NCBI GenBank assembly: GCA_029564595.1
Contig: JAKQPS010000195.1
Span: 1 to 44,335 of the forward strand
Direction: 5' to 3'
Length of the DNA stretch: 44,335 nucleotides
Origin: a bacterium
Lineage (GTDB): Bacteria; UBP15; UBA6099
The position numbers and the translations under genes are program-made. Shown here piece after piece: positions 8,737 to 43,183 of the stretch. The notes beneath the pieces are model-generated. The model had not been told where the DNA came from. It did not search any database and worked only from the letters and a program-made list of their open reading frames with translations. Position 1 is the stretch's first letter, and each line of letters starts with the position of its first letter.

Positions 8737-8790
8737 GAAACAGCGATTCAGAATAATGATTCCGAAAACAACGCAAATGTCGGGTCGGCG

Positions 8791-8826
8791 CGCTAACCCT
8801 CATTTTTCACTATCCGTGTTAATTGC
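8791..8826 (+). repeat. Remnant of the MITE-like family (fused ends)
   Basis: GCTAACCCTCATTTTTCAC is followed directly by TATCCGTGTTAA, that is, the left and right ends of the ~175-bp family with the middle missing. The 8737-9006 gap otherwise holds only the promoter at 8946. Confidence 0.5.
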
Positions 8827-8945
8827 TTCGGCTCTCTTCCCTCTTGTCCGTCTCTGAAATATCTGCTCGAAAACCTGTCGCGCAGCCGAATCCGGAGCCT
8901 GCGCTCGGTCTTTGCGGGCATTTTGAGACAGGCGCGAAGAACCGA

Positions 8946-8956
8946 TATAATATAAT
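8946..8956 (+). promoter_or_regulatory. Double -10 box upstream of the glycosidase-like gene
   Basis: TATAATATAAT gives two overlapping consensus -10 boxes about 50 bases before the ATG at 9007. Confidence 0.5.
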
Positions 8957-9006
8957 TCAGTTATTTGGGCAAAATGGCATAACTATTCGAAACGAGAGTC
9001 ATAACA

Positions 9007-13273: not shown

Positions 13274-16200
13274 TTACGGCGCGCACTGGGCTGGATTCGC
13301 CTCGGCGTTCATCAAGTAGTAGGTTTTTAGAACGAAAAAGTCCTTGATGTCCACTATGCAGTCGCCGTTGAAGTCGGCGGTCGCTGTGAAACCCGTCTGG
13401 CCGCATTCCAGCCCATAGTTCTCTTTGATGGCGCGGAAATCGTGCATATTCACAATGCCGTCGCAATTAGAATCCGCTATGGTAGGCCCGCCGGGGCCTA
13501 TCGGTTGCAGCGCTGGAGAAAGCAGCGTGAATCCGCTCGACGCCAGAGTCAGGTTCGACTTAAGTTCGAGATATGCCACTCCCCCGGAGAACGGCGTGGT
13601 GTGCGGGTAGCCCGTTCCTTCTTCAACCACCAATCTTACTTTGAACAGATCAGACGGAGAAGCTGATTCATACACTATTGTAAACGAGCCGTCAGACGAT
13701 GTGTAGCCTGTGGCGACCACTGTGTCGGCGGGAACGCTCACCAGTTGTATTTCCATACAGGCGACTCCTACGAGCGCGTATCCGCTGGATGTCTGCTGCT
13801 CGACATCCCTCACCAGCAGAGAGCTTGTCACTCCTTTGGTTCCGTAAATGCCGACAGCCGGCGAGGAAGCTTCGCTCAACTGCCCTGCGCCGTCCGCCGC
13901 CTCCACGTAATATGTGTACTGCGTTCCCGGCGTCAGGCCGGAATCCGCGTAGAACGGGGCCGATATCAGAGATGTGTTGAGTTTCTCCGCTTCCTCTGCC
14001 ACGCAGTCGGCTGAGCGATAGATATTATATCCCGCGAGATCTCCCGCAATCAGAGAACCGTCCGAGTTGGTCGTCGGCGCCGTCCACGATATGGAGGCGG
14101 ACGTCCCGCTTCCCGTCATAATCACCGAAAGGCCCGTCGGCGGCGAAGGCGGGAAATCCGGCACGACGCCGGGCGTTCCCGCCGCCTCGTTGGAGTATTC
14201 GCTGACGTTCGGCGGGTCGGAACTGTCGATGGATTCGAGCACATAGTAATACGAGGTCCCGTTCGTCACGTTGGTGTCGAGATATTCAAGCGTGTTCGGC
14301 GGAATGATTTCGGCCGTCAGTTTGCCGTACATCGAGCCTGAAATGAAGCTGCGGTACAGATAATAGCCTTGCAGGTCCGTCAGCGGAGTGTAGTCCTCGT
14401 TGAAGAGAGGTTTCGTCCATCTGACAAGGACTTGGCCATCTCCCGAAACCGTGTTCACGCTCTCCGGGGGCAGCGGAATCGCGTCGTCCGCGTTTCTAGG
14501 CGTTGCCGATACCTGTGACGACGGAACGCTCTGGTTGCCGGCGCTGTCCACTGCGACGACCGCATAGTAATAAGGTGTTCCCTCAATAAGTTGATATGAA
14601 TCCACATATGAAGTGGCGGAAGGCGGAATCAGCCCGTTTATCACTCCGTCCACCTGATTCGGCGTGGTGTCGTAAATGCCTGAGAACGTGCCGCGAACGA
14701 CATTGTAGCCCGCGAGGTCGGTAAGCGGCGCTCCGCTCGAACTTGTCGTCGGGGCCGTCCATGTTATCGTCACATATTCGTTTCCCGGCGTCGGGGATGC
14801 ATCGCCCGCAATCGCCGAAATCCCCGTCGGCTCCTCAGGCGGCCACAAGTCTTGGAACCGGATATGTTTCTTCACTGAGTTCGTGTCTTCGTTAAGGTTG
14901 GACGAACTGTCCCTTGCCCGGACGATGAAATACACATATTCGTTATGCCGCAACCCGGTCACTATATGGCTTGTCGTTCCTGTCACCGTATAGTGCGGGG
15001 CGGACATGTTGAATCCGTTCGTTGTCGACGCCTGATAGATATTGTAGTAAACCGGGGCGGAGCGGTCGGAGGCCGCGGTCCATTCCAGCTTCACCGCTCC
15101 GTTTTCGTCGTAAATCGACAACTTGCTGATACCCGCGAAAGCCGGAGCCGTCTGGTCTGTGGGGGTGGCGGAGAATTCGAGCGCCGCCGTGCTTGTCTCA
15201 TTCGCGTACACGCTGGAGTCCATAGCAGTGACGACGACATACACCGGTTCGTCGTCGTCCAGCCCGGTCAGGTGATATGCGGTCGTTGCGGCTGCCTGCC
15301 GATCCGGCGGCGCGTTAAAATTCTGTCCTCCGGGGGTGTCGGACAGATACACGTTGTAGTACACCGGAGTCGAGCGATCCGTCGCCGCCGACCATGACAG
15401 CACAAGTTCTCCTCCCGCTGTTGAATCTACCGCGCTCTGCAGCCCCGTCCACGTCGGCGGCGTCTGGTCGGTCGGCATCGCCGACAGCGTTGCCGTGTTG
15501 GTTTCGATGTTCGATCTACCGTCTTTGGCTCGAACTCCGAAGTAATACGTCGTCCCGTTCGTCAGCGATGTCACATTGTATGCCAGCGCCTGCGTCGAAG
15601 CGTGTAGCGACGACGCGTTGAACAAAACCGTTGGCGCAGAATTGGTCGATTTGTAGATGTTATAAACGATGGGCGTTGTCGGGTCCGTCGCGGCGTTCCA
15701 TTCCAGCCTGACTTCTCCGCCCTCTGTCGTGTCTTCCGCCGTTTGTAATCCGGCGAAGGCTGGCGGCGCGAAGTCGTTAGGAACCGCTCCTTTTACGACA
15801 TTGTTGGTTTCCGTGTTTCCGAACGCGTCTCTCGCGCGGATTATAAAATAAGTGTAAATCCCGTTCGTCAGGCCTGACACGGTGGCGGTCGCGCCGGTGG
15901 CCGTCTGCTTCACCCCGCCCGCGATTATTGTCGCCGGAGTTGAACTTGAACTGTAATAAATCAGGTAGTCTACAGGCGGCGAGTTGTCCGTCGCCGGGGT
16001 CCATGTTAGATTTATCGCTCCGTATGTCTGCGCGTCGGCGGCCGTTTTCGCGCCGTCGAACAAAGGCGCGGATGTGTCAACCGGCGTCGCCGTCCTGACA
16101 ACAGTGTTGCCGTCCGCGTTGCCGTTGTTGTCTCTGGCCCGCACCGAGAATGAGTGGATGACTCCGTTGGTCAGGCCCGTCATGGTGTATGGACGCGTGG

Positions 16201-19200
16201 AAACGATTACGGTCGGCGTCGAGTAGTTTATCGGGTCGCCTCCCGTCGAGTAGTAGATGAGATATTTTATCGGCGTCGACTGGTCGGTCGCGGGTGTCCA
16301 ATCAAGTTGAACCGCCCCTCCGGCTCCCGTGTTCGCCGCGCTTGTCAATCCAGCAAACACCGGCGGCGTCGAATCCGTCGGCGTCGCGGAACGCTCTTCC
16401 GTATTGACGCTCGACACCCCGCCCGAATCCACTGCCCTGACCACCACATAATAAAGCGTCCCGTTCACCAGTCCGGTGATGGACGCGCTTAATGCCTGCG
16501 TAGTCGTTTTCGGCGTTGTGAAGTTCTGGCCTCCGGATGTCGTCGCCACGTAAACGTTGTAAGTTATGGGAACCGACGGATCGGCAGCAGCCGACCACGA
16601 TGCCGTCAGCGTCCCGCCAGTTCCTGCGTCCACCAAGTCCTCAATCCCCGCGAACACCGGCGCAACTCCGTCGTTCGGCTTGGCCGATTTGTTCACAGTA
16701 TTCTTTTCTTCCCTCTTGCCGGGGTCCATCGCCCGCACGACGAAGTAATACGTCGTTCCGTTCGTCAGTCCGGTCACGACCACTCCCGTCGCGTTCTCGG
16801 TCGTGTATGCGGGCGTGGCGAACACCGTCACTGTCTGGGTGGCCATGTAGATGTTGTATGTTATCGGAGCCGAATCGTCCGTCGCCGCAGTCCATGACAG
16901 TTGAATCTCTCCGCCGCTTCCGGTTGCCGCTGCCGACGCAAGCCCGGTGAACACAGGGTTAGCGCCGTCCGTCGGCACGCACTTCGTGTAGCCTCCGATG
17001 CTCGCGTTCGGAAATACCGCCGCCTCGGAGCCGCCGTAGTTGCCGGCTGCGTCCATCGCCTTGGCCACGAAGAAATACTCCTGCCCCATTGTCAGCCCTT
17101 CGACGTCGTGCCTCGTCACGTCCTCGCCCTGCGTATATGGCGGAGACACGAAGTCGAAGTGTTCCTCGCCGTATTCCGTCGCGGTGAAAACCTCGTATGT
17201 TATCGGGAACGAGTTGTCCAGCGCAGCTTGCCAGCCCACCTGTATCGTGTCGCCTTCCCCCTTGTCGAGACAGAAGTTCACCCCTTCGAACACAGGCGGT
17301 ATCGCGTCTGTGGGCGTCACCGTGAACTCCACAGTGTTGGTTTCCCTGTTCCCCTCTTTGTCCTCCGCTCGCACGGCGAAGGTATAGGCCACATTGTTGG
17401 TCAGTCCGGAAATTACCGCCTCTTCGGCGGTCGTCACGAAAGTTTGCGGATTGTTATAGTCGAGGATGGCTCCGCCTTGGTTGTAAAAAATGTAATACTT
17501 TATGGGTTGCGAATTGTCCGTCGCCGCAGTCCAAGTCAGTTGAACCGAAGCCCCGCTTTCCATGTCGGCGGCGGCTCCGAGTCCGGCGAACGTCGGCGCC
17601 ACCGCGTCCGTCGGCGTGACGCTCAGTTCGACGGTGTTTCCATCGTTAAGCCCGCCTTTGTCCCTCGCCCTCACCGCAAAATAATACACGGTGTTGTTCT
17701 GCATGCCGGTCACTGTGTATGTGGTGACTCCCGACACAGAGAATGTCGGGTGCGACCAGTTGTACGCGCCGGACGCCCCGGCGGCGAATATATCGTATGT
17801 TATCGGGTGCGGCGGGCTGGTGTTGTCCGTCGCCGCCGCCCACGTCAGCGTCGCTTCCCCGCCCTGCCCCGTGTCGACCGCCGTTGAGATGCCCGCGAAG
17901 ACCGGGGCCTCCCCGTCGGTGAGCGTCACCGTCACATAGTTTGTGTTCTCATCCTCGTTGGCGAGCGGAGACGCGTCCGCCGCTCGCACAATGAAGTATA
18001 TCGTCTCCCCGTACAGCAGCGCGGGATCCGTTATCTCCACCGAACCGGAGTCCGTGGTGGTTGCGAAAGGCGTTCCTAAATCGAACTCTTCCGGCTCCAG
18101 CGCGGCATAAATGTTATATGTTATCGGCGGATTCGCGTCTGTCGCCGCTTCCCATTCGAGAATCACCCCGGGGTCCGGCGCGTTCTCCGCGTCCGTGGCC
18201 GCCGTCACTCCGCCGAACAACGGCGGATACGTGTCAGTGTCCGCTATGAACGTCAGCGAGTCGTCGTCATTGTATTGCAATAAATACGGGCCTTCGTCCT
18301 CCGGCCCCGGCACGATCGACACAAGCCCCTTCGGCCCGAACGTCTCAAACGTCAGCGGCGTCCCGGCTATCTCTTGATACTGGGGGTTTACAGCGTACAG
18401 CTTTTTCTGCGTTGTCGACACGATGTAAAGGTTCTTCGTCTGCGGATGATACGCGATGTCGGTTATGTTTGAAATGCCCGAAGGGCTGATCACCTGAATC
18501 GCCTCGTTCGAATTTCCGTCTATGACTGTCGCCACGCCCGCAGGATGCATCACGTATATCAGGTTGTCCTCTTCGTTCACCACTATCTTGTCCGGCGACG
18601 AAAAAACCTGAATCCGCACTATGAAGTTGTTCGTCGTTCCGTTGTATATGTAAACTTCGCCCCGGATGTTGTCGGACACATATATCTTGCCGGTAGTCTC
18701 GTTTACGGCCACCCCTCGAGGCGAGGTCAACTCGTTTCCCATCAGCGTCGCGACGGTTGCGTAGGTGTCCGCGTTCATCACCGTCACCAGTTGGGAGCCG
18801 GGCCGCGCCACGTACACCCTCTTGGCCGCCGTGTTCACCGCGATTCCTCTCGGAGACCCGCCCATCGATATCGGAGCTTCCATCAGCCCGGAATTTATGT
18901 CATATATGTAAAGCTTCAGATCGTTCAGCCCCGTAATGAACGCCTTTGGGGAAACCGGGTCGTTATACACCGCCACTTCCCACGGGTACGAGCCGGAGCC
19001 GGTGTCGATGTAATCGACCGAGGGCGGGTCGAACTCCATTCGCACAAGCCTGCTGCTTGCCGGGAGCGTCAAGAAAGCCTGTCCCAACGCGCCGTCGTCA
19101 TACATCGCCCCGTCGTTTACCGTCCCGGTCAAAGAGCCGGCCGATCCCACTTCTGTCACTTCGGCGATCGCGGGAGCCGCGCAGACCAATAGCGCGGCTA

Positions 19201-19258
19201 TGCCGCTGATGACGGCCGCCCGAATTCGTCTTCCTGTTTTTAGGTTGCGGAAAATCAA
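13274..19258 (-). CDS. Giant secreted fibronectin-type-III/dockerin surface protein
   Basis: About 1,994 residues. A signal peptide with an Arg/Lys-rich start and the core VISGIAALLVCAAPAIA ends near residue 32. Residues ~50-335 form a YVTN/NHL-like propeller (VYVARPGSQLVTVMNADTYA, IYVSDNIRGEVYIYNG). Eleven fibronectin-like repeats of ~100 residues follow (~341-1467), each with a PP/AP-F-G opening, W-AATD and Y-VRA-D. Three more of a second type (AGYNVYRS style) run to ~1806. Then come a carboxypeptidase-regulatory-like domain and a dockerin-type pair of Ca loops (DSNCDGIVNMHDF, DFNGDCIVDIKDF). It likely forms an extracellular adhesin or scaffold. The frame is open to a TTG at 19318, but that lies inside repeat C; TTG 19258 has AAAGGA eight bases before it. 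Confidence 0.82.
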   Translation of the reverse strand: MIFRNLKTGRRIRAAVISGIAALLVCAAPAIAEVTEVGSAGSLTGTVNDGAMYDDGALGQAFLTLPASSRLVRMEFDPPSVDYIDTGSGSYPWEVAVYNDPVSPKAFITGLNDLKLYIYDINSGLMEAPISMGGSPRGIAVNTAAKRVYVARPGSQLVTVMNADTYATVATLMGNELTSPRGVAVNETTGKIYVSDNIRGEVYIYNGTTNNFIVRIQVFSSPDKIVVNEEDNLIYVMHPAGVATVIDGNSNEAIQVISPSGISNITDIAYHPQTKNLYIVSTTQKKLYAVNPQYQEIAGTPLTFETFGPKGLVSIVPGPEDEGPYLLQYNDDDSLTFIADTDTYPPLFGGVTAATDAENAPDPGVILEWEAATDANPPITYNIYAALEPEEFDLGTPFATTTDSGSVEITDPALLYGETIYFIVRAADASPLANEDENTNYVTVTLTDGEAPVFAGISTAVDTGQGGEATLTWAAATDNTSPPHPITYDIFAAGASGAYNWSHPTFSVSGVTTYTVTGMQNNTVYYFAVRARDKGGLNDGNTVELSVTPTDAVAPTFAGLGAAADMESGASVQLTWTAATDNSQPIKYYIFYNQGGAILDYNNPQTFVTTAEEAVISGLTNNVAYTFAVRAEDKEGNRETNTVEFTVTPTDAIPPVFEGVNFCLDKGEGDTIQVGWQAALDNSFPITYEVFTATEYGEEHFDFVSPPYTQGEDVTRHDVEGLTMGQEYFFVAKAMDAAGNYGGSEAAVFPNASIGGYTKCVPTDGANPVFTGLASAAATGSGGEIQLSWTAATDDSAPITYNIYMATQTVTVFATPAYTTENATGVVVTGLTNGTTYYFVVRAMDPGKREEKNTVNKSAKPNDGVAPVFAGIEDLVDAGTGGTLTASWSAAADPSVPITYNVYVATTSGGQNFTTPKTTTQALSASITGLVNGTLYYVVVRAVDSGGVSSVNTEERSATPTDSTPPVFAGLTSAANTGAGGAVQLDWTPATDQSTPIKYLIYYSTGGDPINYSTPTVIVSTRPYTMTGLTNGVIHSFSVRARDNNGNADGNTVVRTATPVDTSAPLFDGAKTAADAQTYGAINLTWTPATDNSPPVDYLIYYSSSSTPATIIAGGVKQTATGATATVSGLTNGIYTYFIIRARDAFGNTETNNVVKGAVPNDFAPPAFAGLQTAEDTTEGGEVRLEWNAATDPTTPIVYNIYKSTNSAPTVLFNASSLHASTQALAYNVTSLTNGTTYYFGVRAKDGRSNIETNTATLSAMPTDQTPPTWTGLQSAVDSTAGGELVLSWSAATDRSTPVYYNVYLSDTPGGQNFNAPPDRQAAATTAYHLTGLDDDEPVYVVVTAMDSSVYANETSTAALEFSATPTDQTAPAFAGISKLSIYDENGAVKLEWTAASDRSAPVYYNIYQASTTNGFNMSAPHYTVTGTTSHIVTGLRHNEYVYFIVRARDSSSNLNEDTNSVKKHIRFQDLWPPEEPTGISAIAGDASPTPGNEYVTITWTAPTTSSSGAPLTDLAGYNVVRGTFSGIYDTTPNQVDGVINGLIPPSATSYVDSYQLIEGTPYYYAVVAVDSAGNQSVPSSQVSATPRNADDAIPLPPESVNTVSGDGQVLVRWTKPLFNEDYTPLTDLQGYYLYRSFISGSMYGKLTAEIIPPNTLEYLDTNVTNGTSYYYVLESIDSSDPPNVSEYSNEAAGTPGVVPDFPPSPPTGLSVIMTGSGTSASISWTAPTTNSDGSLIAGDLAGYNIYRSADCVAEEAEKLNTSLISAPFYADSGLTPGTQYTYYVEAADGAGQLSEASSPAVGIYGTKGVTSSLLVRDVEQQTSSGYALVGVACMEIQLVSVPADTVVATGYTSSDGSFTIVYESASPSDLFKVRLVVEEGTGYPHTTPFSGGVAYLELKSNLTLASSGFTLLSPALQPIGPGGPTIADSNCDGIVNMHDFRAIKENYGLECGQTGFTATADFNGDCIVDIKDFFVLKTYYLMNAEANPAQCAP

Positions 19259-19301
19259 GTCCTTTTTCCTTTCGCGCGCGGCGAGTCCGCCGGCGGCTTC
19301 A

Positions 19302-19476
19302 CCCGCTTTTTTCACCAATGCGGGTTGAAATCGAAGAAAGGGATGAGATGTCGGCGAATCGAGCGGGAACGAGGGAGCATACTGTTTCGTATGCGGCCAA
19401 GTTCGAGCCGATGACTCAACGACGTAAACCGCCCTTTATTTGATTTCCCGGATTTTCCCCGTGAAAAATCCGGGTT
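19302..19476 (+). repeat. MITE-like interspersed repeat, copy C
   Basis: Full family member. The right end, reversed, reads TTAACCCGGATTTTTCAC, matching the left end of copy D (TAACCCGCATTTTTCAC) as a terminal inverted repeat. The apical stem is a perfect GCATAC/GTATGC. It lies just upstream of the fibronectin gene. Confidence 0.75.
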
Positions 19477-25443: not shown

Positions 25444-25617
25444 ATGAAGTCCGTCAACGCGCTCAAAAACAGCATTGGACACTTCCCTTTCGCATCAGTT
25501 TTGAGACCGGTTCAGTCGTCTAAATCTGATTGGACAATCGTCGCGATGCGAGAAAACAGCAAGAAAAAACGTCCATCCCGCTACACAGAAAATGTCCTTA
25601 TATGGCTTGATTGTTAA
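25444..25617 (+). CDS. Possible 57-residue basic small protein
   Basis: An open frame from ATG to TAA encoding a Lys/Arg-rich peptide (RENSKKKRPSRYTENV near the end). It ends by overlapping the 3' end of thiL on the other strand by four bases. It follows a candidate promoter, but no ribosome site is clear and I recognise no family. It may be chance. Confidence 0.2.
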   Translation: MKSVNALKNSIGHFPFASVLRPVQSSKSDWTIVAMRENSKKKRPSRYTENVLIWLDC

Positions 25618-26633
25618 AAATGAAGGAATGAGGCTTCCGGCCATGGAAGTATTTCTCCGGAGGAAGAAACAAGTGTGATGCCGCGTTCGCGCGAAACAAT
25701 TTCGCCTATCCTTGTAGCGCGTGTTCCGGCAGATTCGATATTTCGTTCTAAATCGTCAACTTTTGAGGCGGACGCGGTTATCAGCAGATTAAAATCCTCT
25801 CCGCCGCGAACGGCGAAAGAGGCAAAAGAGACATCCGAGCGTCTTGCCCACGCGCGGAGATCAGGCGATGTGGGTATTTTTTCCTCATAAATAACCGCGC
25901 CTACGCCGGATCTGGCTGTGAGACGCGGCAAATCCACCGCAAGGCCGTCGCTGAGATCCATCATTGCCGTCGGAGCAAGAGACGCAGAAGCGGCCAGACC
26001 CGCTGCAAGCGAAGGTTCTGGAGCAAGGTGGCGGTTGATAAGTCGCTTCATAAAAGGAATAGTGATTTCGGATTTCGGAAACAAACTAAGTATCTGTAGC
26101 CCCGCCGCACTGTCTCCGCACGTGTCTGTGACAAGAATTATATCGCCGGGAGCCGCGCCTTTGCGAAGGATCGCGCGATTTTTGCGCGCTCGGCCCAGCA
26201 TGGCGATATTGACAATAGCCCTGTCCGAGCGCACAGTGTCGCCTCCCGCAATGACGACGCCGTATCTTTCACAAGCGGCGGCGATGCCTTCATAAAGAGA
26301 TTTTATGAAGTATTCCCTCGCGCGGGGCCTTGCGCCGACGGAGACGACAGCCGCAGTAGGCTTGCCGCCCATCGCCGCGATGTCGCTGACGCTTGCCGCA
26401 ATCGCTTTCCAGCCCACTTGATAGGGAGATGCCCATTCAAGGTTGAAGTGAACGCCCTCGACCAGCAGGTCGGTTGTCACGAGAGTCTCGGAATCGTCCG
26501 CGCTCTCGCAGAGCGCCGCCGCGTCGTCTCCTATCCCGACGCGCACCGGCGGCCCCGGCGGGCCGAGGATGGTTTTGATGCGCTCTATCAGCGCGTCCTC
26601 GCCGGGTTGTTCTTTGCCGCGTTTTCCGGCCAT
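25614..26633 (-). CDS. thiL: Thiamine-monophosphate kinase
   Basis: A 339-residue cytoplasmic kinase that phosphorylates thiamine monophosphate to the active diphosphate using ATP. Signatures are VGIGDDAAAL with Asp36-Asp37, VTTDLLVEGVHF, KAIAASVSDIAAMGG (~94-108), IAGGDTVRS, and the C-domain MMDLSDGLAVDLPRL. Length and order match ThiL of the PurM/AIR-synthase superfamily. The start ATG follows a purine-rich GAGAG stretch rather than a strong ribosome site. It is divergent from tsaE. Confidence 0.93.
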   Translation of the reverse strand: MAGKRGKEQPGEDALIERIKTILGPPGPPVRVGIGDDAAALCESADDSETLVTTDLLVEGVHFNLEWASPYQVGWKAIAASVSDIAAMGGKPTAAVVSVGARPRAREYFIKSLYEGIAAACERYGVVIAGGDTVRSDRAIVNIAMLGRARKNRAILRKGAAPGDIILVTDTCGDSAAGLQILSLFPKSEITIPFMKRLINRHLAPEPSLAAGLAASASLAPTAMMDLSDGLAVDLPRLTARSGVGAVIYEEKIPTSPDLRAWARRSDVSFASFAVRGGEDFNLLITASASKVDDLERNIESAGTRATRIGEIVSRERGITLVSSSGEILPWPEASFLHF

Positions 26634-33217: not shown

Positions 33218-33310
33218 TTTTTCCGTCTTTCGGTTTTGCGCATCAAGCGCGCGGCTCTTTAACGACTTGCACTTACCCGAAGCCAGCATTAAATATCGGG
33301 CCGCTTAATT

Positions 33311-33370
33311 TGCATCGCGGCGATTAATCGCCGCTCTGCCTTTGCGGGCATTCATTCCCGGCCCCCGTAT
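33311..33370 (+). repeat. Family 2 repeat, left-end fragment
   Basis: GCGGCGATTAATCGCCGC, a perfect 18-bp palindrome, followed by CATTCATTCCCGGC. Confidence 0.6.
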
Positions 33371-33449
33371 TGAGAAATAATACGGGTTGCGCTCACAATC
33401 TCCTTCCTGACTATGCCTAAAGATCAGTCAAAAACAATGCGTTATTTTG

Positions 33450-33600
33450 TATTGCGGCGATTAATCGCCGCTCTGCCTTTGTCGGGAATCTATTCCCGGC
33501 TCCCATGTAGAGCGGTAACGCCGATTCCCGCCGCCATTTGCGAAAAAAAAGGACTGGCAATGCGCTTCTTTTGCGACGCCTGTACCCTCTTTTCTCCACT
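33450..33600 (+). repeat. Palindromic interspersed repeat family 2, nearly full copy
   Basis: Matches 6250-6402 along its whole length, with GCGGCGATTAATCGCCGC, GATTCCCGCCGCC and GCCTGTACCC. It is the last GC-rich element before the AT-rich island. Confidence 0.7.
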
Positions 33601-33737
33601 CGCACAACTATCCCCAATCCGCCATTATGATTCGGATGCGATTGTTCAGAGCGGATGAAATGCAAGACTTAAGGCGCGTTTATTTACATTGAATAGAACT
33701 TTAGGTTCATGAATAAAAATAATGCGGCGGCAACTAA

Positions 33738-33770
33738 GCAGTTCCCTGCTATAAAAATCGCCCCGGTTCG
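33738..33770 (-). repeat. Island-edge 33-bp motif, inverted copy
   Basis: On the minus strand it reads GAACCGGGGCGATT, then an 11-12-base spacer, then GAACTGC. Plus-strand copies lie at 39888-39920 and 40962-40994. The three bracket the AT-rich island. Confidence 0.55.
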
Positions 33771-33775
33771 TCTGC

Positions 33776-35961
33776 TCTATCAACGAATCCTGCATTATTA
33801 CCGATGTCTCCGCCCAGACATCTCCTCATTCCAAACAAGCGCCACTATTATTGTTTTCCGTAATTTTTCGCTTATATTCTATCTGTTTTCTATCTTTTCT
33901 TCTCTTTCTTTCTCGAATGTCTTATTTGTCATTATATTGCGTCTATTGCCTAAATCCATGTTCATATACTCCCTCACATGACCATATCGCCATTTTCATG
34001 CTTAGCGTATTCTAATTTCTTCCTTCGTCTTCTCTAAAATTGCTTTTTCAACTATCTTTCATCCTCCTAATACTTCTCTCCGTTTTTTACTGCAATTTTT
34101 ATATTATTCCAACTGTCCACTTGAATGCAATACGCTATTTTTTCCTTTATTGTTGCCATTTTATATTCGCTACCTCTGTCCAGCCTCGTCCATCTTTCTT
34201 ATTTATCTTCTTCATTTGCATCTTGCGTTCATTGTTGCGCTATTCATTTCCTTCCATATATTTCGGTTTTATTGTGCTTATTTTATATGTTTCTTATCCA
34301 TTAAAATAACTATTTCATATTCCCTCCTAATTTCTGCGCCATTATTATTATTCTTTATATATTATTATTCTAGTCAGTATATCTCATATTTTATCTGTTT
34401 ATCTTTGTTATTCTTTATTTTACTTTGTCTATTGTGCTGCGTGTCCGTTCTAAATTTTAGCAGACATAATTTATTACCTTTATTTATTATGTTTTTTTCT
34501 TAATGCTATATTTCGCACATATAGCATGGCCATACTATTGAGTCGCCTCATTATTTAATCTGCGTTCTCTGTTTATTCCTTTAATGAAGCATATTTCTTA
34601 GCTACACGTCAAAATAGTTCCGTAAACGACTTTTCCAGACATTTTGCTTCTTCATGACCCGTTTTTTATTATGACCACATTGAGGTCACACTTCATAATC
34701 TGATTCTTATGCCTCCTATAATAAATCATGCCATATCCACATCTTCACATTGGCTCGGGCCTTTCCTGCTTGCACAAAGCTCAATGCCCCTACTTTTAAA
34801 ACTATTCTATTTTGCTTATCCATATTATAGTTTGCTCTCAAGTTTCTGATCGAAGAGCATACTCATGTAACAATGGAATTTTTTTCAAGACTTAACTTTT
34901 AGACGCCACTTTTCTAAGTTCGGCTTTTTCCTTTGCCAGTAACAACACCATCGACTACCGGCAAATAGACACGCGCTTTTATTTTTGACTGCGTTTATCG
35001 TGTTCATCTCAAAAATATTGTACATTTCAAAAGCTTTTCTTGTTTTGCGAACCTAAAACCACTACTTTTTACCAAAATGAAGACATATCATGATTCAATA
35101 ATATTAAAACGTCTATGAATGACTGAAAATTCGCCCTGCGCAAAACAAACAAACCATATTATTGCGGGTTCATGCCTTTTCGTCTTATTTCAAAGCTCTT
35201 TTTCCTTCCTTTTGATATTATTGCTATTTTCATTTATAATTTCCTTTATGCAATGATTAAATATATCTGCCTATATGTCACAATGATTACATTTATTAAT
35301 ATGTCGCATTACTTTTGTGTTTTAATTTTAGTCGATTTTCATTTATTGATGTTTTTTATGTTTTGTTTTGCAATTATCCTGTTATGCGCTTGTTCTGATT
35401 ATTTAAGCTCTCACTATTTGCACACCTTCACAATGTCTTCAAATTCTTGTTCATCAATACGCTTTTTTCCTTTATCTTTAAGCTTCCGGCCAAATAGAAA
35501 TTTGTCGTGTCAACACAAACAAGCAATAATGTGCGCGCCAATAACGCAATAGCGCAATGTGCTTGCCATATGGCGTGGCTGTCTTTTTCTCTTCCTGCCT
35601 TTTCCTTCGTTACTAAGCTTGTTTTCGCCTATTCCTTGCTTGTCATGCAAAATGCCGCGAAATGCACAAAACCGACATCTTGCGCTCGACCTCTACTAAT
35701 TTGCTCTTTTTCTTGTTTTAACCACCGTTTTTCCACCTTTTCTGATCTGACAATCTATGCAAAACGACAAAAACGTTTTTGTATTTAAAAATGTGGTTTT
35801 CCAAATCCGGCAATATCAACACGCAACTTATAAAATGATGGCGTGACCAAAATAATTCTTTATTATTAGCTATATTTATCTAATATGTCTTGCCATGTAC
35901 AATGCATAAATGTTTTGGCAGCCTATATTTACAGATACGTGATATTGTATATAATATACTT
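33776..35961. other. T-rich, G-poor apparently non-coding DNA
   Basis: About 2.2 kb in which the plus strand is visibly rich in T, then C and A, and poor in G (runs such as TTTTCTTCTCTTTCTTTC). Several plus-strand frames of 90-126 codons exist, but they encode only Phe/Leu/Ile/Ser-rich sequence with no motif, ribosome site or family likeness, as expected when purine-rich stop codons are rare. No gene is supported. It ends at the recombinase promoter. Confidence 0.6.
35950..35955 (+). promoter_or_regulatory. -10 box six bases before the recombinase ATG
   Basis: TATAAT inside the palindrome ATATTGTATATAATAT. The ATG at 35962 follows without a ribosome site, so the transcript may be leaderless. 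The palindrome could also be a binding site for the recombinase. Confidence 0.45.
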
Positions 35962-36882
35962 ATGAACCTTAAAGAAGCTATATGTTTATTCCTTTCTGAC
36001 CTCAAGCGGAAAGGTTACTCCTCTAAAACTGTCAAAGCCTACGAATTCGACCTCGGAAAACTTTCTGATTTCCTTTCAGGCCAATCCAACATGCCGGACA
36101 CCGCAATCCCGGTGTCCAGCATCAACACTAACGATCTCAGGCGTTGGGCAGACCTCTGCTTGGACAACAACAATACACCCCGGACACTTTCTCGTAAGAT
36201 GGCAACCTGTAAATCTTTCTTTAGATTCCTTGTAATCGAAAGCATTGTTGAGATAAATCCCGCAGACAGGGTTTCACTGCCAAAAACGCCTAAAAAACCG
36301 CCCTCTGCATTGTCTCAAGACGAGATTAGACAGCTAATCAACGCCCCTGTCCCTGAAGAGAGAGACTATCTTCGCAACAAGGCTATTCTATTATTAATGT
36401 ACAGCGCGGGCCTGCGCGTAAGCGAAATTGTGTCTATGAAGATGGAGCAGTTGCTGCTGGAGCGTCAGGCAGTGCGGGTGAGGGGGAAGGGGGCCAAGGA
36501 TCGCATCCTGCCCCTTGCCGACTCCTCTAGAAAGGCTATAATCGACTATTTCTTGGAAAGGGAGAAGAAACTCCCTAACTCAATAGACCCCAAGGCTCCC
36601 GCTTTTATTACCTCGAAAGGCGAGCCTTTAACTGTTAGAATGATTCAATATATGGTATATAAATATGGTAAAACAGCAGCTATACCCCTACATGTTCATC
36701 CGCATCTTATTCGACATTCTATCGCCACCCACCTCATCGAGGAGGGATGCAGCGTTGAGGCGGTAAGACAAACTCTAGGACATGAGGATCTCGCAACAAC
36801 GTCAATTTACTTAAAAGCCTCCTCAAAATTTTTAAAAGACGAACATCAAAAGTATAACCCGTCCGATAAACTTTCAGAATAA
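35962..36882 (+). CDS. XerC/D-like tyrosine recombinase
   Basis: A 306-residue site-specific recombinase, the usual Xer length. The N-terminal SAM-like core-binding domain (~1-90) includes FLSDLKRKGYSSKTVKAYEFDL and LSRKMATCKSFFRFL. The catalytic domain is complete: Arg152 in SAGLRVSE, the Lys hairpin VRGKGAKDR, His248 and Arg251 in HLIRHSIATHL, His274 in LGHEDL and nucleophile Tyr283 in SIYLKAS. It could resolve chromosome dimers at a dif-like site or move a genetic element. It sits alone inside the AT-rich island, with palindromes on both sides. Its GC content is higher than the DNA around it, so it is the only clearly conserved gene between 33.7 and 38.2 kb. Confidence 0.92.
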   Translation: MNLKEAICLFLSDLKRKGYSSKTVKAYEFDLGKLSDFLSGQSNMPDTAIPVSSINTNDLRRWADLCLDNNNTPRTLSRKMATCKSFFRFLVIESIVEINPADRVSLPKTPKKPPSALSQDEIRQLINAPVPEERDYLRNKAILLLMYSAGLRVSEIVSMKMEQLLLERQAVRVRGKGAKDRILPLADSSRKAIIDYFLEREKKLPNSIDPKAPAFITSKGEPLTVRMIQYMVYKYGKTAAIPLHVHPHLIRHSIATHLIEEGCSVEAVRQTLGHEDLATTSIYLKASSKFLKDEHQKYNPSDKLSE

Positions 36883-38180
36883 ATTATCGATAAATAATAA
36901 TAAAACGCAATTAAAACATAATATTGTTTACAAAATTATTGTTTTACCACCTCATATCGCTCACCTAGCAAAAATAACACGCTTAATCTAATCAAGAAAA
37001 TAGCCCATTCTGTCTCTCTTCTCGGCGGCATAAACTAGGGAGGCCATATTTCATAAAATTCAACAAATGTTTGAAACGCCTTTTCATCGTGTAATAATTT
37101 GTACAAGTTTGTCTTCTAATTCATGTGCTTAATATTATTATTTATGTCTTGTTAATCGATAACAATCAGGATGTAATAAATCATTTATTATACAGCAGTC
37201 TAAAAATATATCATCAAATAATCGGCTTATATATCGCTACTATTTAGATTGTTAATATTTTCGGCCACGCACAATATATTGCGAGTATTTATATTTTTTA
37301 TCACACAGTAAATTTTAGAAAACACAACACAAACGCAAGGGTGTTTGTTTTGTGTGTTTTTATGATTTCATGATTTTGCCATTTCAAACCACGCTATCTC
37401 TACACTTTTTTATTAGTCCTGAAACAGTCGCGAAACAGTCGAAAAAAGCTAGCTAATTTGCTCGATTGCCATGCTTCATGGATGCCGCGCGGCCAAAATA
37501 TTCTTTCTACGATAGCAATATTTATGGACACGGCGTAGGATGCGATAAATCTGCGTCGGCTTTGGGCGCACATTTTAGATCCGGCTGATATTTCGATCCC
37601 TACATACAAAAATAGGGTTGGCGATGTTTTGACCACCGCCATCCCCCGACTTTTCTGATATCCGATGTCCTGTCATCAGATTAATCTTGAGCAGGGGTCC
37701 TTCGGAGCTTCTTCAGCCCCGGGTGCTGGATAATCCGATCTTCGCGCTCAAAAAGTCCGCTGGGAAAGATGCGTCGCAAAGTATTTTTGGTCTCAGCCGC
37801 GCAGTATAATAGCGGGACAGAAAGATGCGGCTCCACTAGCTGAAGCTCCGTGTTGATAAAAACGATTGCTTCTTTGTTATTGTGGCCGTCAAGACGGCGA
37901 TATATCCGAAAATTGCTTCACAAGTCCGCATTTGCCGTTTTCGCCAGCGGATTCGGCGCAAGCGCGCAGTGCGGGAGCCGGGACCGCCTTGTGTTGCATC
38001 CATACTGATTGCATTCCGGGACTGTTTAGAACAGTAATTCTATATATCATAGAATTAAAAAGAATAATTAGATTTTAAAAGGGGGTTGTCTTGAATTAAG
38101 TTAAGTGATAAGCTTATAAACATTACAAAATGATTTAAAAGGTTGTTATAGTTTGCAAAATGAATAATTTGAATTTTTTG
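36883..38180. other. AT-rich DNA downstream of the recombinase
   Basis: About 1.3 kb without a supported gene. It holds an inverted repeat at 36913-36945 and TTTTGTGTGTTTTTATG near 37345. A more GC-balanced patch (37400-38000) has a minus-strand frame of 80 codons (37400-37642) containing LYVGIEIS, faintly like the start of IS110-type transposases, too weak to call. Confidence 0.4.
36913..36945. repeat. Imperfect inverted repeat after the recombinase
   Basis: AAAACATAATA...TTATTGTTTT around TTGTTTACAAAA, 30 bases after the stop. It is either a terminator or a dif-like recombinase site. Confidence 0.35.
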
Positions 38181-38209
38181 TTGACAGATGAATATTAAAA
38201 ATATAATAT
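38181..38209 (+). promoter_or_regulatory. Strong promoter of the HTH operon
   Basis: TTGACA at 38181-38186 and TAATAT at 38204-38209 (17-base spacing), with TATAAT two bases earlier. A second -10-like TAAAAT is at 38226. AGAGG lies just upstream of ATG 38257. Confidence 0.6.
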
Positions 38210-38256
38210 AGTTTTTAAGATGCGTTAAAATACATAATAGAGAGGAAAAGTGACCG

Positions 38257-38451
38257 ATGGAAGAATTCTATACGGTCAGAGAAATCGCAGAAATCCTCAA
38301 AGTGAATAAAGTCACCGTGCAGAGGTGGTGCAAGACGAAAGATCTGCCGGCGGTGAAGATCGGCAAGTCATACAGGGTAGAGAAGAACGACTTTGAGGAA
38401 TGGTACACGAAGAAAAAGGGAGAGCCGTTTCAGGGTTCTCTGAAGTTCTGA
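38257..38451 (+). CDS. Excisionase-like helix-turn-helix DNA-binding protein
   Basis: A 64-residue MerR-like/Xis-type domain: YTVREIAEILKVNKVTVQRW (helix-turn-helix), PAVKIGKSYRVEKNDFEEWY (wing and recognition end). Such proteins act as recombination directionality factors or small regulators. It lies 1.4 kb from the tyrosine recombinase and opens a three-gene set with the next two. Which role it plays here is inference. Confidence 0.82.
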   Translation: MEEFYTVREIAEILKVNKVTVQRWCKTKDLPAVKIGKSYRVEKNDFEEWYTKKKGEPFQGSLKF

Positions 38452-38515: not shown

Positions 38516-39184
38516 ATGGAAGAAGCGCTGACACTGAAGGAGATAGCGAATCGGCTGGGAACGCCCGAATCGAATTTGAGGTATTACCGAAACCGGATCG
38601 GCGATTTTCTGCCGTCTGTGGGCAAGGGCAGGAGAAGAAGATATCTGCCGGAGTCTATGGAAATATTCCGGCGAACGGTCGAGATGGTTCAGGAAGGCGT
38701 GTCGCTCGACCGGGTGTACAGGAATCTGGCGGCGGAAAGACCGATAGAGGCGGACACTGCGGGCGCGATTACGCAAGAGGCTCTCGCGGAGGATTTATCT
38801 AAAAAAATTGCTGAAAAAATCGCTATTTCCGGTTTATCAAAGAGCGATGCCGAAAGCGGCGCAATTCAAAAGCAATATATGGAAGAACTTGTCGGACGGC
38901 TGGAAGAAGCGGTTGGCCGACTGGGAATGAGAATCGAAGAAACGGCCGGGTATGGAGCGGGAGAATCGGAAGAACCGTTTAAGGCGGAGATTTCCCGGCT
39001 GATCATAGAGGTCGAAGAAAAAAGAGCTGAACTAAAGGAATTAAGAGAAGATTTGAGAAAGAAGGACGCGATAATCGAGCGGCAGAAAGAACAGTTGCTC
39101 GAAGCGCGAAGCGGAAGGCTAAACATAGAGAAGGAATTGACCGAAATAAGGGCAATTCTGGAGAGAGCGTCGTCCGGAAGATAG
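38516..39184 (+). CDS. MerR-like HTH protein with long coiled coil
   Basis: A 222-residue protein. The N-terminal ~70 residues are a MerR-type winged HTH (LTLKEIANRLGTPESNLRYY, RRRRYLPESMEIFRRTVEMV). The rest is charged helical sequence with a coiled coil at ~155-215 (IEVEEKRAELKELREDL, ERQKEQLLEARSG). The RacA-like plan, MerR HTH plus coiled coil, is known in chromosome-anchoring and partition proteins; a perfect parS lies 1 kb downstream. That link is inference. It has no ligand-binding Cys as in metal-sensing MerR. A GAGGG lies about 13 bases upstream. Confidence 0.7.
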   Translation: MEEALTLKEIANRLGTPESNLRYYRNRIGDFLPSVGKGRRRRYLPESMEIFRRTVEMVQEGVSLDRVYRNLAAERPIEADTAGAITQEALAEDLSKKIAEKIAISGLSKSDAESGAIQKQYMEELVGRLEEAVGRLGMRIEETAGYGAGESEEPFKAEISRLIIEVEEKRAELKELREDLRKKDAIIERQKEQLLEARSGRLNIEKELTEIRAILERASSGR

Positions 39185-39216: not shown

Positions 39217-39717
39217 GTGGAAAGGCCCAAACCGCCCAGACCTGATAGAGTGCGCGACATAAACAGCGGCAGCACATGGGGATGGGTTGATCACAGACTG
39301 GAATGGTGGCTCGAGGACCTCACACAAGAGGAGGTTCTTTTATATTTTTACCTGATAATGAAAAGCGATCGCAACGGTTGTTCGTGGTGTTCGACGCGCG
39401 AGATGCAGAAAAGGCTCAAAATGGGGCCGTCCACAATCATCCGCGCCCGCCAGATGTTGGAAGAACGCGGCTTGATCGCCGCCGAAAAAGACGAACTCAG
39501 CCAGAGATATATATATCAGGTGATGTCGTTGCCGATACAGGAAAACGAACGGCTGCAGATACCGATGATAAAGAAGGGGCGGCCGGCGAAAAAAAGCGGC
39601 TCAAAATCAAGCAAAAATGAAGCCGTCGCCCAAACGCCCGCTCCTGATTCCTCTCCCGATCCCGAAGCAGGCAAACGGTATCTGGATGAAATCATGGGAA
39701 GACTTAGCAGGCCGTAA
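39217..39717 (+). CDS. Winged-HTH (replication-initiator/DnaD-like or HTH_36) protein
   Basis: A 166-residue protein. Residues ~20-105 carry a winged helix (LTQEEVLLYFYLIMKSDRNG, STREMQKRLKMGPSTIIRA, RQMLEERGLIAAEKDE), as in HTH_36 and plasmid replication-type proteins. The C-terminal ~60 residues are basic and Pro/Ser-rich, ending in a small helix (KRYLDEIMGRL). The GTG start has AGGGGA eight bases upstream and lies 32 bases after the preceding stop, so it is in the same operon. Confidence 0.7.
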   Translation: MERPKPPRPDRVRDINSGSTWGWVDHRLEWWLEDLTQEEVLLYFYLIMKSDRNGCSWCSTREMQKRLKMGPSTIIRARQMLEERGLIAAEKDELSQRYIYQVMSLPIQENERLQIPMIKKGRPAKKSGSKSSKNEAVAQTPAPDSSPDPEAGKRYLDEIMGRLSRP

Positions 39718-39887
39718 CGTCCGGAACTCTCTCTTTATCCCAACACTCCAACATTCCATCATGCCAATGCTTAGATGAATTTTCATTGATTTTGCGAGGA
39801 ACCTTCTTTTGCAACGTAATAAACAGTTTCTTGCGTCCTTTCTAACCTGAAAAACCGTTTTATCCCATATTCGCCGATAGAGCAGGC

Positions 39888-39920
39888 GAACCGGGGCGAT
39901 TGCTCAGAGTGACGAACTGC
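39888..39920 (+). repeat. Island-edge 33-bp motif, plus copy 1
   Basis: GAACCGGGGCGATT, 12 bases, GAACTGC. Pairs as an inverted copy with 33738-33770. Confidence 0.55.
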
Positions 39921-39926
39921 ATTGTT

Positions 39927-39960
39927 GCCGCCTCATTTATGTTTCGCAGAGGCGGTTTTG
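39927..39960 (+). terminator. Likely terminator of the HTH operon
   Basis: GCCGCCTC pairs with GAGGCGG, followed by TTTT. It lies about 210 bases after the last stop. The remaining 39718-40200 gap shows no gene. Confidence 0.45.
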
Positions 39961-40210
39961 CCCCGCCCGAAATGATGGCGTTGTTGAGCGCGGAACCCGC
40001 GCTACTGCGCTAAAATGCATATTTGAGCGTCGCTTTTTTATTCCCGCGAACAATCATTTCTAATCCCAGATACTATAATGATTTTTAAATGGTTTTACCT
40101 GTCGCGCGCCACAACGGGGTGTGGGCGGCCACCCGGCACAATGGGTAGAATCATATAATACTCCGCACAACATCCGTATCAATAGAAAACCTAGTGTTTC
40201 AAAATTAAAT

Positions 40211-40226
40211 TGTTTCACGTGAAACA
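40211..40226. promoter_or_regulatory. Perfect parS (ParB-binding) palindrome
   Basis: TGTTTCACGTGAAACA, an exact match to the canonical 16-bp chromosomal parS. It lies in an AT-rich non-coding stretch and its symmetry extends slightly into A/T flanks. ParB-CTP clamps would load here and, with ParA or SMC, move the replicon. No parA or parB is in the window. Confidence 0.8.
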
Positions 40227-40268
40227 AATTTCAGTAAAAATAGATTTTTATATCGGTTTCTGATATTA

Positions 40269-40283
40269 ACAGTATTTAACTGT
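40269..40283. repeat. ACAGT/ACTGT palindrome near parS
   Basis: ACAGT-ATTTA-ACTGT, 43 bases from parS; it may be a protein site or chance. Confidence 0.25.
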
Positions 40284-40352
40284 GATTGACTATATGTGCA
40301 TATACATTGCGCGCAGCTTTGTTGCTGTTTTGCTCTATCGGGGGGGCGGTTT

Positions 40353-40540: not shown

Positions 40541-40961
40541 GGTTTTTTCCAAATCACCAAAGGCAAGAAACAGTTTTGAACGGCTTTTCTGGTTGAAATA
40601 GCAGTTTCAGCCCTGATTGTGTTCCGATAGCCTGTCTTCAAGCGCTTCCGTTTGTCTGACGGGGGTCGGCATTTCTGAAAGAGATCGTCATTAGACTGCG
40701 ACAGAACATAGCAACAAATGATAATCGTGTAATGATATTATTTTCGATATCCGAAAAACATTGGCGCCATCATATTTGATTCAAGCCCGGAACAGTATTG
40801 CGCGCAAAATACTTGCTCTGTTGTGTATTTTGTCAGCCTTTGCGTCTCCGCGACTTATAAGTAATCATCCGACTCAGGTCGTTTTCATTGCCATTGCTGA
40901 CCCGTGCCAACCCGATCTTCCACTGTGTTTAGATAATCCCGAATTCGTCGTCGGAGCCGTC

Positions 40962-40994
40962 AAACCGGGGCGATTGTTCTTAACGGCGAACTGC
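40962..40994 (+). repeat. Island-edge 33-bp motif, plus copy 2
   Basis: AAACCGGGGCGATT, 12 bases, GAACTGC. It lies inside a 93-codon frame (40761-41042) that has no other support. Confidence 0.55.
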
Positions 40995-41384
40995 TTCTCG
41001 CCCCAAAACACAGCTTGGGGGCGCCACCCTCTTTGTTCATGATTCCTATGTTCTATTCACTGCAAAAACGAGCCTTGAGTTCAGCGTTTCATCCGATCTG
41101 AATACCAGCGCCCCATTCCTGTCTAAGCATTCGAGTTGAATAGCTTATAAGGCGGTCCGCCGCAGGTCTTCTCCTTAGAAAGGAGGAGCCTCTAGAGACG
41201 AAAGAATTGGTGTCTGGTTGTATCTGCTATTCCCATCTCATAAAATTTGCCTGTTTAAGGACAGCGGCGGCAGCCGCAGCTTTTCGTATTAAATCAAAAA
41301 AGAGAATGGTTTTATTTCTTTTATTTCTTTTATTTTAAATACAGGGCAAAAACGTTATCCGTGAGAATCGGAATGTTACCGTGT

Positions 41385-42055: not shown

Positions 42056-43183
42056 ATGAGAAAAATCAGAATGATAAAAGCGATGGCGATGGCGACGATT
42101 TTGGCGGCGCAGGCGGCGGTTTGGGGCGGGTCTGCGGAGTGCGCGGAGGCGCGCGCGGGCGTTGCGCCGCCAGCCGCGGCAAGGCGGGGCGCGATCGACA
42201 TGCCCCGTTGGAGCCCGGACGGGGGCAAGGCCGCTTTCGTTTACGCGCTGGGCGGCGGCTCCGACGTCTACACCGTCGATGCCGACGGAACGGGCCTGAT
42301 GAACATTTCCCGCAGCCCGGGCAGAAACACGAACCCGGTGTGGAGCCCGGATGGCAAGTGGCTGCTGTTCACGTCCGACCGCAACAAGCAGACGGACATC
42401 TGCAAGGCGGACAGGGACGGCGGGCAGGTGGAGTGCTGGAAGAATCCGGGGGACGACATGTGGCCGGCGTGGAGCCCGGATGGGGCGACCATCGCTTACT
42501 GCAACTATGCCACCGGCGAGTCGCTTGTCTATCTGATGGACAGCGGGGGCGGGAACCGGCAACTGCTGCACGACGAGCGGGCGAGCCATCCCGCGTTTTC
42601 GTCCGACGGAAAAAAACTGGCGATGACGGCAAGCGGCAACCTGTTGGTGTACGACCTGAAGAGCCGCAAGAGCAAGAACATAACGAAGGCGCTGTTGGAA
42701 GGCTGGGTGGTGGAAGACACCATGCCCGTCTGGGCCCCAAGAGGCAACCGTATCGCCTTCATCGGCAAATATGAGGGATATGCGTCTGAGCTATACACGA
42801 TCGATTCAGACGGCGGCAAGGTGCGCCGCATATCTGAGACTCTGTATGAGAATTTCCTGCCCGCGTGGGAGCCTAAGAGCAAGGGCATCGCGTATTCGGC
42901 GTATGTGGCCGGGCGGCTGCCGGAGATATTCGTTTCCGAGCCTGAATCGCCTGTGAAGAAGCGGCTTACCGACAACTATGTCATCGAGATGGACCCGCGT
43001 TTTTCTCCGGACGGGAAGAAAATCCTCTTTGTGGCGCGCATAGGAACGAATACGGATATGTACATAATGGACGCGGAAGGCAAAACCGAGCCTGAAAAGT
43101 TTCTCAAAGAAGGGCTTCCGACGGTCGAGCAGATGAGAAAAAAAGCCGAAGCGGCTAGAAAGCGGAAAGCGGCCACTCAATAA
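42056..43183 (+). CDS. Secreted TolB-like PD40 beta-propeller protein
   Basis: A 375-residue exported protein. Signal peptide ~1-30 (basic start, Ala/Met-rich core, AECAEA cleavage). Six or more PD40/WD40-like blades carry the W/F-SPDG signature (RWSPDGGKAAFVY, VWSPDGKWLLFTSDR, AWSPDGATIAYC, AFSSDGKKLAM, RFSPDGKKILFVAR). It resembles the C-domain of TolB without the TolB N-domain, so a periplasmic protein-binding or peptidase-accessory propeller is likelier than true TolB. The C-terminus is a charged helix (EQMRKKAEAARKRK). The start is placed after the promoter, not at the longer frame from 42020 that would overlap it. Confidence 0.8.
   Translation: MRKIRMIKAMAMATILAAQAAVWGGSAECAEARAGVAPPAAARRGAIDMPRWSPDGGKAAFVYALGGGSDVYTVDADGTGLMNISRSPGRNTNPVWSPDGKWLLFTSDRNKQTDICKADRDGGQVECWKNPGDDMWPAWSPDGATIAYCNYATGESLVYLMDSGGGNRQLLHDERASHPAFSSDGKKLAMTASGNLLVYDLKSRKSKNITKALLEGWVVEDTMPVWAPRGNRIAFIGKYEGYASELYTIDSDGGKVRRISETLYENFLPAWEPKSKGIAYSAYVAGRLPEIFVSEPESPVKKRLTDNYVIEMDPRFSPDGKKILFVARIGTNTDMYIMDAEGKTEPEKFLKEGLPTVEQMRKKAEAARKRKAATQ

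What the first reader, a model, noticed from the sequence alone, without database searches (positions are those of the whole stretch)
40211..40226. Perfect canonical parS without parAB nearby
TGTTTCACGTGAAACA is the exact ParB site. Chromosomal parS sites cluster near oriC, but this one lies beside an Xer recombinase and a RacA-like MerR/coiled-coil gene. It may mark an origin-proximal region, an integrated plasmid, or a centromere-like locus.
Basis: partly seen in the sequence, partly recalled or inferred. Interest (0 to 1): 0.55.

Follow-up and report, generated by a model that had tools for sequence, protein, structure and literature searches.

The report
Conserved chromosomal ParB-binding site, outlying
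The window holds a genuine, conserved docking site for the ParB chromosome-segregation protein, on a different assembled piece from the gene for its likely ParB partner; such sites are a known kind, but here it sits beside an uncharacterised cluster of DNA-binding and recombinase genes.

Summary
In detail: a perfect 16-base parS lies at 40211-40226. About 0.0008 perfect copies are expected by chance in this 4.4 Mb genome; it has two. The other lies at the expected place, between rsmG and two tandem parB genes on contig C59, so ParB exists in the genome. Both C59 ParBs keep the residues that read parS; a third ParB, on contig C111, does not.

The window site looks functional by conservation. 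In a same-genus genome it sits in a roughly 140 bp island of 92% identity inside intergenic DNA that otherwise does not align. In a genome of another family the only parS again lies beside the same four-gene cassette (Xer-like recombinase, excisionase-like HTH, MerR/coiled coil, initiator-like winged helix), at its other end, on a contig carrying acpS and dxs/uppS, hence probably chromosomal.

GC skew switches from minus to plus about 2 kb from the site, the strongest such switch in 1.6 Mb sampled. Origin proximity is likely but unproven. RacA and XerC/D identities are not supported.

Best reading: an outlying chromosomal ParB nucleation and condensin-loading site, a new member of a known kind. 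What the cassette does is open.

The parts
40211..40226 (.). perfect parS (ParB nucleation site)
40173..40315 (.). conserved intergenic island around parS: 92% over 147 columns with G001:C337; 30-column windows at 0.83-1.00 identity from 40173 to 40305, flanks at 0.2-0.6
35956..36882 (+). Xer-like tyrosine recombinase (Phage_integrase, SAM-like N-terminus); below XerC and XerD equivalog cut-offs; ortholog G005 C112:58021-58998 (56% identity)
38257..38451 (+). 64-aa HTH_17 / excisionase-family DNA-binding protein; very similar reading frame in the G005 cassette (read by eye)
38516..39184 (+). MerR_1 HTH with a charged, presumably coiled-coil C-terminus; ortholog in G005 (50% in the alignment)
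39217..39717 (+). HTH_36 winged helix resembling DnaD-like loaders and phage O-like replication initiators; ortholog in G005 (43%)
36883..38256 (.). 1.4 kb AT-rich non-coding gap (GC 0.37) inside the cassette; GC skew switches from minus to plus at about 37.5-38.5 kb
33221..35889 (.). 2.7 kb AT-rich, pyrimidine-rich stretch (GC 0.37, GC skew -0.26, AT skew -0.23) before the recombinase
42059..43183 (+). PD40 (TolB-like) beta-propeller gene; ortholog next to parS in G001 (99%) and 12 kb from parS in G005 (54%)

Best explanation
The site is a genuine chromosomal parS lying apart from the parB genes. ParB made from the rsmG-linked tandem genes on contig C59 (ParB1 and/or ParB2) binds it as a dimer, clamps with CTP, slides onto neighbouring DNA and loads SMC condensin. 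The region is thereby organised and segregated early, as a second nucleation point beside the one at rsmG-parB. Shown here: the perfect site, its conservation, and a genome with ParBs whose contact residues are of the parS-reading type. Inferred from the family: binding, spreading, SMC loading and segregation. Likely but unproven: that the site lies near the replication origin.
For: Perfect site, 0.0008 expected per genome. Second perfect site between rsmG and parB1 on C59. ParB1 keeps 7 of 7 parS contacts listed in PMC7383237 (Q162, G170, K171, S172, R173, N178, R204) plus G201; ParB2 keeps 6 of 7 plus G201 (residues; list). Conserved island around the site in G001, with unalignable flanks. 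In G005, another family, the only parS in the genome at up to 1 mismatch lies 1.0 kb upstream of the orthologous recombinase, on a contig with acpS and a dxs/uppS gene. Skew switches at C36:38.5 kb (-0.44 to +0.20) and C59:51 kb (-0.26 to +0.29) are the two largest in 1.60 Mb at 20 kb arms.
Against: In G005 the only ParB-family hit is the ParB3 type, which lacks most parS-reading residues; unless ParB1/2 lies in an assembly gap there, that parS has no obvious reader. No parS at up to 1 mismatch was found in G002, G004 or G006 (67-80% complete). The island is seen in one relative only. The right-hand skew arm of C36 is only about 6 kb long. No DnaA-box cluster lies near the site. SMC was not searched for. 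No binding data exist.
Confidence: 0.8

Rival explanations
1. The cassette and parS are the replication and segregation core of a second replicon (chromid) or of a plasmid that integrated long ago: the winged helix initiates, the recombinase resolves dimers or integrated it, parS is its centromere.
For: Recombinase, excisionase-like HTH and initiator-like winged helix together; origin-like skew switch separate from that at C59; the 30.6-41 kb stretch gives no non-repeat match in the listed rows for G001, G002 or G003 except the parS island (that list was cut at its end).
Against: Neighbours are ordinary chromosomal-type genes (ilvD, flagellin, AIR-synthase family, FlhB) and the G005 contig carries acpS, clp and dxs/uppS. 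No ParB or AAA_31 hit on the contig. The winged-helix protein finds nothing in 72,556 plasmid or 50,697 phage records. Absence from relatives coincides with contig ends (G003:C48 starts inside FliK; G001:C337 ends 378 bases past parS). Chromids can carry core genes, so this is not excluded.
Confidence: 0.1
2. The window holds the true chromosomal origin, and C59 (dnaA, gidA, parB) is elsewhere on the chromosome.
For: Strongest skew switch of the sample, at 38-38.5 kb in raw and four-fold-site measures; AT-rich non-coding DNA beside it.
Against: Only 6 DnaA-box-like matches (up to 1 mismatch) in 44 kb, with no cluster. C59 shows its own switch beside rsmG-parB. In G005 the dnaA contig, not the parS contig, has a DnaA-box cluster and a local switch.
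Confidence: 0.12
3. A chance palindrome, or a decayed relic with no present role.
For: No ParB gene on the contig; only one same-genus relative shows the site.
Against: 0.0008 expected per genome; conserved island; same neighbourhood in another family.
Confidence: 0.04
4. The reader of this site is ParB3 (C111 type), encoded next to a BY-kinase, not ParB1/2.
For: In G005 ParB3 is the only ParB hit and lies 50 kb from the only parS, on one contig.
Against: ParB3 keeps 2 of 7 parS-contact residues (G170, R204) and has I162, D172, V173, A178, K179, K184, E201 (alignment; list).
Confidence: 0.12

Closest known systems
Chromosomal parS of the ParABS (Spo0J/ParB) system
   Same: Identical 16-bp palindrome; ParBs with parS-type contact residues in the genome; second copy beside rsmG-parB
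   Different: Lies on another contig from parB; no soj-type parA found beside any parB
Noc binding sites (NBS) of Bacillus
   Same: Read by the same protein family; TIGR04285 (Noc) is the top NCBIfam hit of ParB1, ParB2 and ParB3, all below its cut-off
   Different: The site is parS, not NBS (NBS letters recalled); ParB1/2 have R173 and G201, not Q173 and R201
ParB-parS without ParA, with the BY-kinase CpsD (Streptococcus pneumoniae)
   Same: ParB-parS present; a BY-kinase linked to a ParB (here by gene order only)
   Different: Here the link is gene adjacency with a divergent ParB3; no interaction shown
RacA
   Same: N-terminal MerR-type HTH plus a presumably coiled-coil tail
   Different: No RacA match in Pfam, NCBIfam or PDB sequence searches

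Membership tests
Chromosomal parS | 16-bp consensus palindrome | tested here: met
   0 mismatches
Chromosomal parS | a cognate ParB with parS-reading residues in the genome | tested here: met
   ParB1 7 of 7, ParB2 6 of 7 contacts
Chromosomal parS | conservation in relatives | tested here: met
   G001 island and G005 neighbourhood; no site found in G002, G004, G006, and G003 has only the rsmG site (all incomplete)
Chromosomal parS | origin-proximal position | tested here: inconclusive
   skew switch but separate contigs and a short right arm
Chromosomal parS | ParB binding in vivo | not testable with these tools
   needs ChIP-seq
ParABS | ParA ATPase next to ParB | tested here: not met
   no AAA_31 hit on C59; the only one beside a ParB in G000 is the BY-kinase on C111; best G000 score 59.7 bits; hits elsewhere were not classified, so a ParA away from parB is not excluded
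XerC/XerD-dif | score above the equivalog cut-off | tested here: not met
   XerC 249.3 of 335.15, XerD 234.4 of 329.6; the C24:40788 gene passes XerD (344.9)
RacA | match to a RacA family or structure | tested here: not met
Integrated plasmid | partition genes on the element | tested here: not met
   no ParB hit on C36, no AAA_31 hit on C36
Integrated plasmid | similarity to known plasmids | tested here: not met
   winged-helix protein only

The most novel reading that the evidence does not exclude
The conserved cassette (Xer-like recombinase, excisionase-like HTH, MerR/coiled coil, initiator-like winged helix) with its adjoining parS and skew switch is a domesticated replicon core that now acts as a second origin or centromere module in the chromosome of this small phylum.
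Probability: 0.12. Interest if true: 0.75.

Novelty: new member of a known kind. Interest (0 to 1): 0.35.

Why it matters
It shows that a phylum represented here by only 7 genomes has ParB-parS, with a parS apart from parB that is kept with the same four-gene cassette in two families. If the cassette acts in replication or segregation it would tie a recombinase and an initiator-like protein to a bacterial centromere.

Tried and rejected
RacA homology: no family or structure match. XerC/D identity: below both cut-offs. RNA genes and tRNAs in the window: none. DnaA-box cluster at the site: none. Plasmid, phage and viral-contig relatives of the winged-helix protein: none. The GTDB contig scan with the MerR pair gave 4 loci: G005's own record and 3 Desulfohalobiaceae MerR domains (45-52% over up to about 80 residues), not pursued. 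Structure of the winged-helix protein: mean pLDDT 58.3, core blocks about 74-93; Foldseek gave generic winged helices, none at E<=0.001. The gidA search was empty in 5 of 5 relatives but had no positive control, so it shows nothing alone. Skew results against my reading: with 12 kb arms C57:93500 outranks C59, and in raw skew the C59 places rank fifth and eighth and lie at 39.5 and 55 kb, not at parS. Literature searches for distant or orphan parS and for parS with chromid or Xer terms (listings and abstract openings only) gave nothing on this locus.

Full report
Observation. The 16-base palindrome at 40211-40226 matches the parS consensus without mismatch and lies in intergenic DNA. Under a dinucleotide model 0.0008 perfect copies are expected in the 4,395,446-base genome. 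The genome has two perfect copies and one with 2 mismatches. The window is the whole of contig C36, so the distance to loci on other contigs cannot be measured.

Where ParB is. TIGR00180 finds four ParB-family genes: two in tandem on C59 (ParB1, ParB2), one on C111 (ParB3) and one on C173. The second perfect parS lies between rsmG and parB1 on C59, and the 2-mismatch site lies in gidA. dnaA is on C59, about 13 kb from the parB pair. Using the parS contacts listed by Jalal et al. (PMC7383237, passages read) and the numbering fixed by the Noc alignment, ParB1 keeps 7 of 7, ParB2 6 of 7 and ParB3 2 of 7. So ParB1/2 are the likely readers of the window site. No soj-type ParA stands beside any of the three; the best AAA_31 score in this genome is 59.7 bits. 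ParB-parS without ParA is known in pneumococcus and S. aureus (PMC7333895, passages read).

Conservation. The phylum has 7 genomes in the collection. At up to 1 mismatch, G001, G003 and G005 have one parS each and G002, G004 and G006 have none. The G001 site is the window's counterpart: it lies beside the TolB-like ortholog (99%), in an island aligned at 92% over 147 columns. Thirty-column identity is 0.83-1.00 from 40173 to 40305 and falls to 0.2-0.6 outside. The G003 site is the rsmG one. In G005, of another family, the single parS lies 1.0 kb upstream of the recombinase ortholog, and recombinase, HTH_17, MerR and winged-helix genes follow in the same order. In the window parS is at the other end, 0.5 kb past the winged-helix gene. 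ilvD, TolB-like and PIG-L-type genes are also shared by the two contigs. No ortholog of the cassette was found in the other five relatives, but contig ends fall at the gap in G001 and G003.

Neighbours. The recombinase is below the XerC and XerD cut-offs, while a separate gene on C24 passes XerD. The MerR protein has no RacA match. The winged-helix protein scores best against DnaD-like loaders and replication initiators in PHROGs (top five E 1.5e-8 to 4.6e-6), which suggests but does not show a replication role.

Origin proximity. In 18 contigs (1,598,588 bases) the two largest minus-to-plus switches of four-fold-site GC skew with 20 kb arms are C36:38.5 kb and C59:51 kb, about 1-2 kb from the two parS. 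The window's left arm is negative for most genes on both strands (one exception at 25614-26633), so it reflects strand more than coding direction. Caveats: the right arm is 6 kb, skew is patchy elsewhere (C57 scores 0.51), with 12 kb arms C57 outranks C59, and raw skew ranks C59 lower. The contigs beyond C36 and C59 were those whose numbers had turned up in earlier searches, not a random draw. Two such switches on one single-origin chromosome need rearrangement or a second replicon to explain them. No DnaA-box cluster lies near the site.

Is it a second replicon? The G005 contig carries ACPS, Clp and a dxs/uppS gene, which argues for the main chromosome. Together with the lack of plasmid or phage relatives of the winged-helix protein this makes the chromid reading a minority one.

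Unresolved. G005 has a perfect parS but only a ParB3-type hit. Either its rsmG-parB segment is missing from the assembly, or ParB3 reads parS despite its altered residues.

Verdict. A real, conserved, outlying chromosomal parS: a new member of a known kind. The linked cassette is the part worth following.

Noticed in passing
L039 (G000:C111) 7815-10883; L073 9038-12900; L159, L160, L161: A divergent ParB (ParB3) follows directly after a Wzz/BY-kinase gene (with a tyrosine-rich C-terminus in the copies printed for G000, G002, G003 and G006) in 5 of 5 genomes where the upstream side is on the contig (G000, G002, G003, G005, G006; the G002 ParB frame is). In pneumococcus the BY-kinase CpsD interacts with ParB (PMC4574921, passages read). 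One search (listing and abstract openings only) showed no paper on such a gene pair.
   Followed up: partly
L038 8198-9837; L042 5924-7563: Two tandem parB genes follow rsmG in G000 and G003, with parS in front and no parA beside them.
   Followed up: partly
window 33610-33790, 39870-39940, 40930-41140: Copies of a dispersed repeat, with many relatives in C59 and in same-genus genomes, flank the cassette in inverted orientation.
   Followed up: no
window 33709-35889: Pyrimidine-rich AT-rich stretch without convincing genes.
   Followed up: no
L078 3494-6148: G005 has one open frame joining undecaprenyl diphosphate synthase and DXP synthase.
   Followed up: no
window 13274-19318 (-): 2014-aa protein with fibronectin type III repeats.
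   Followed up: no
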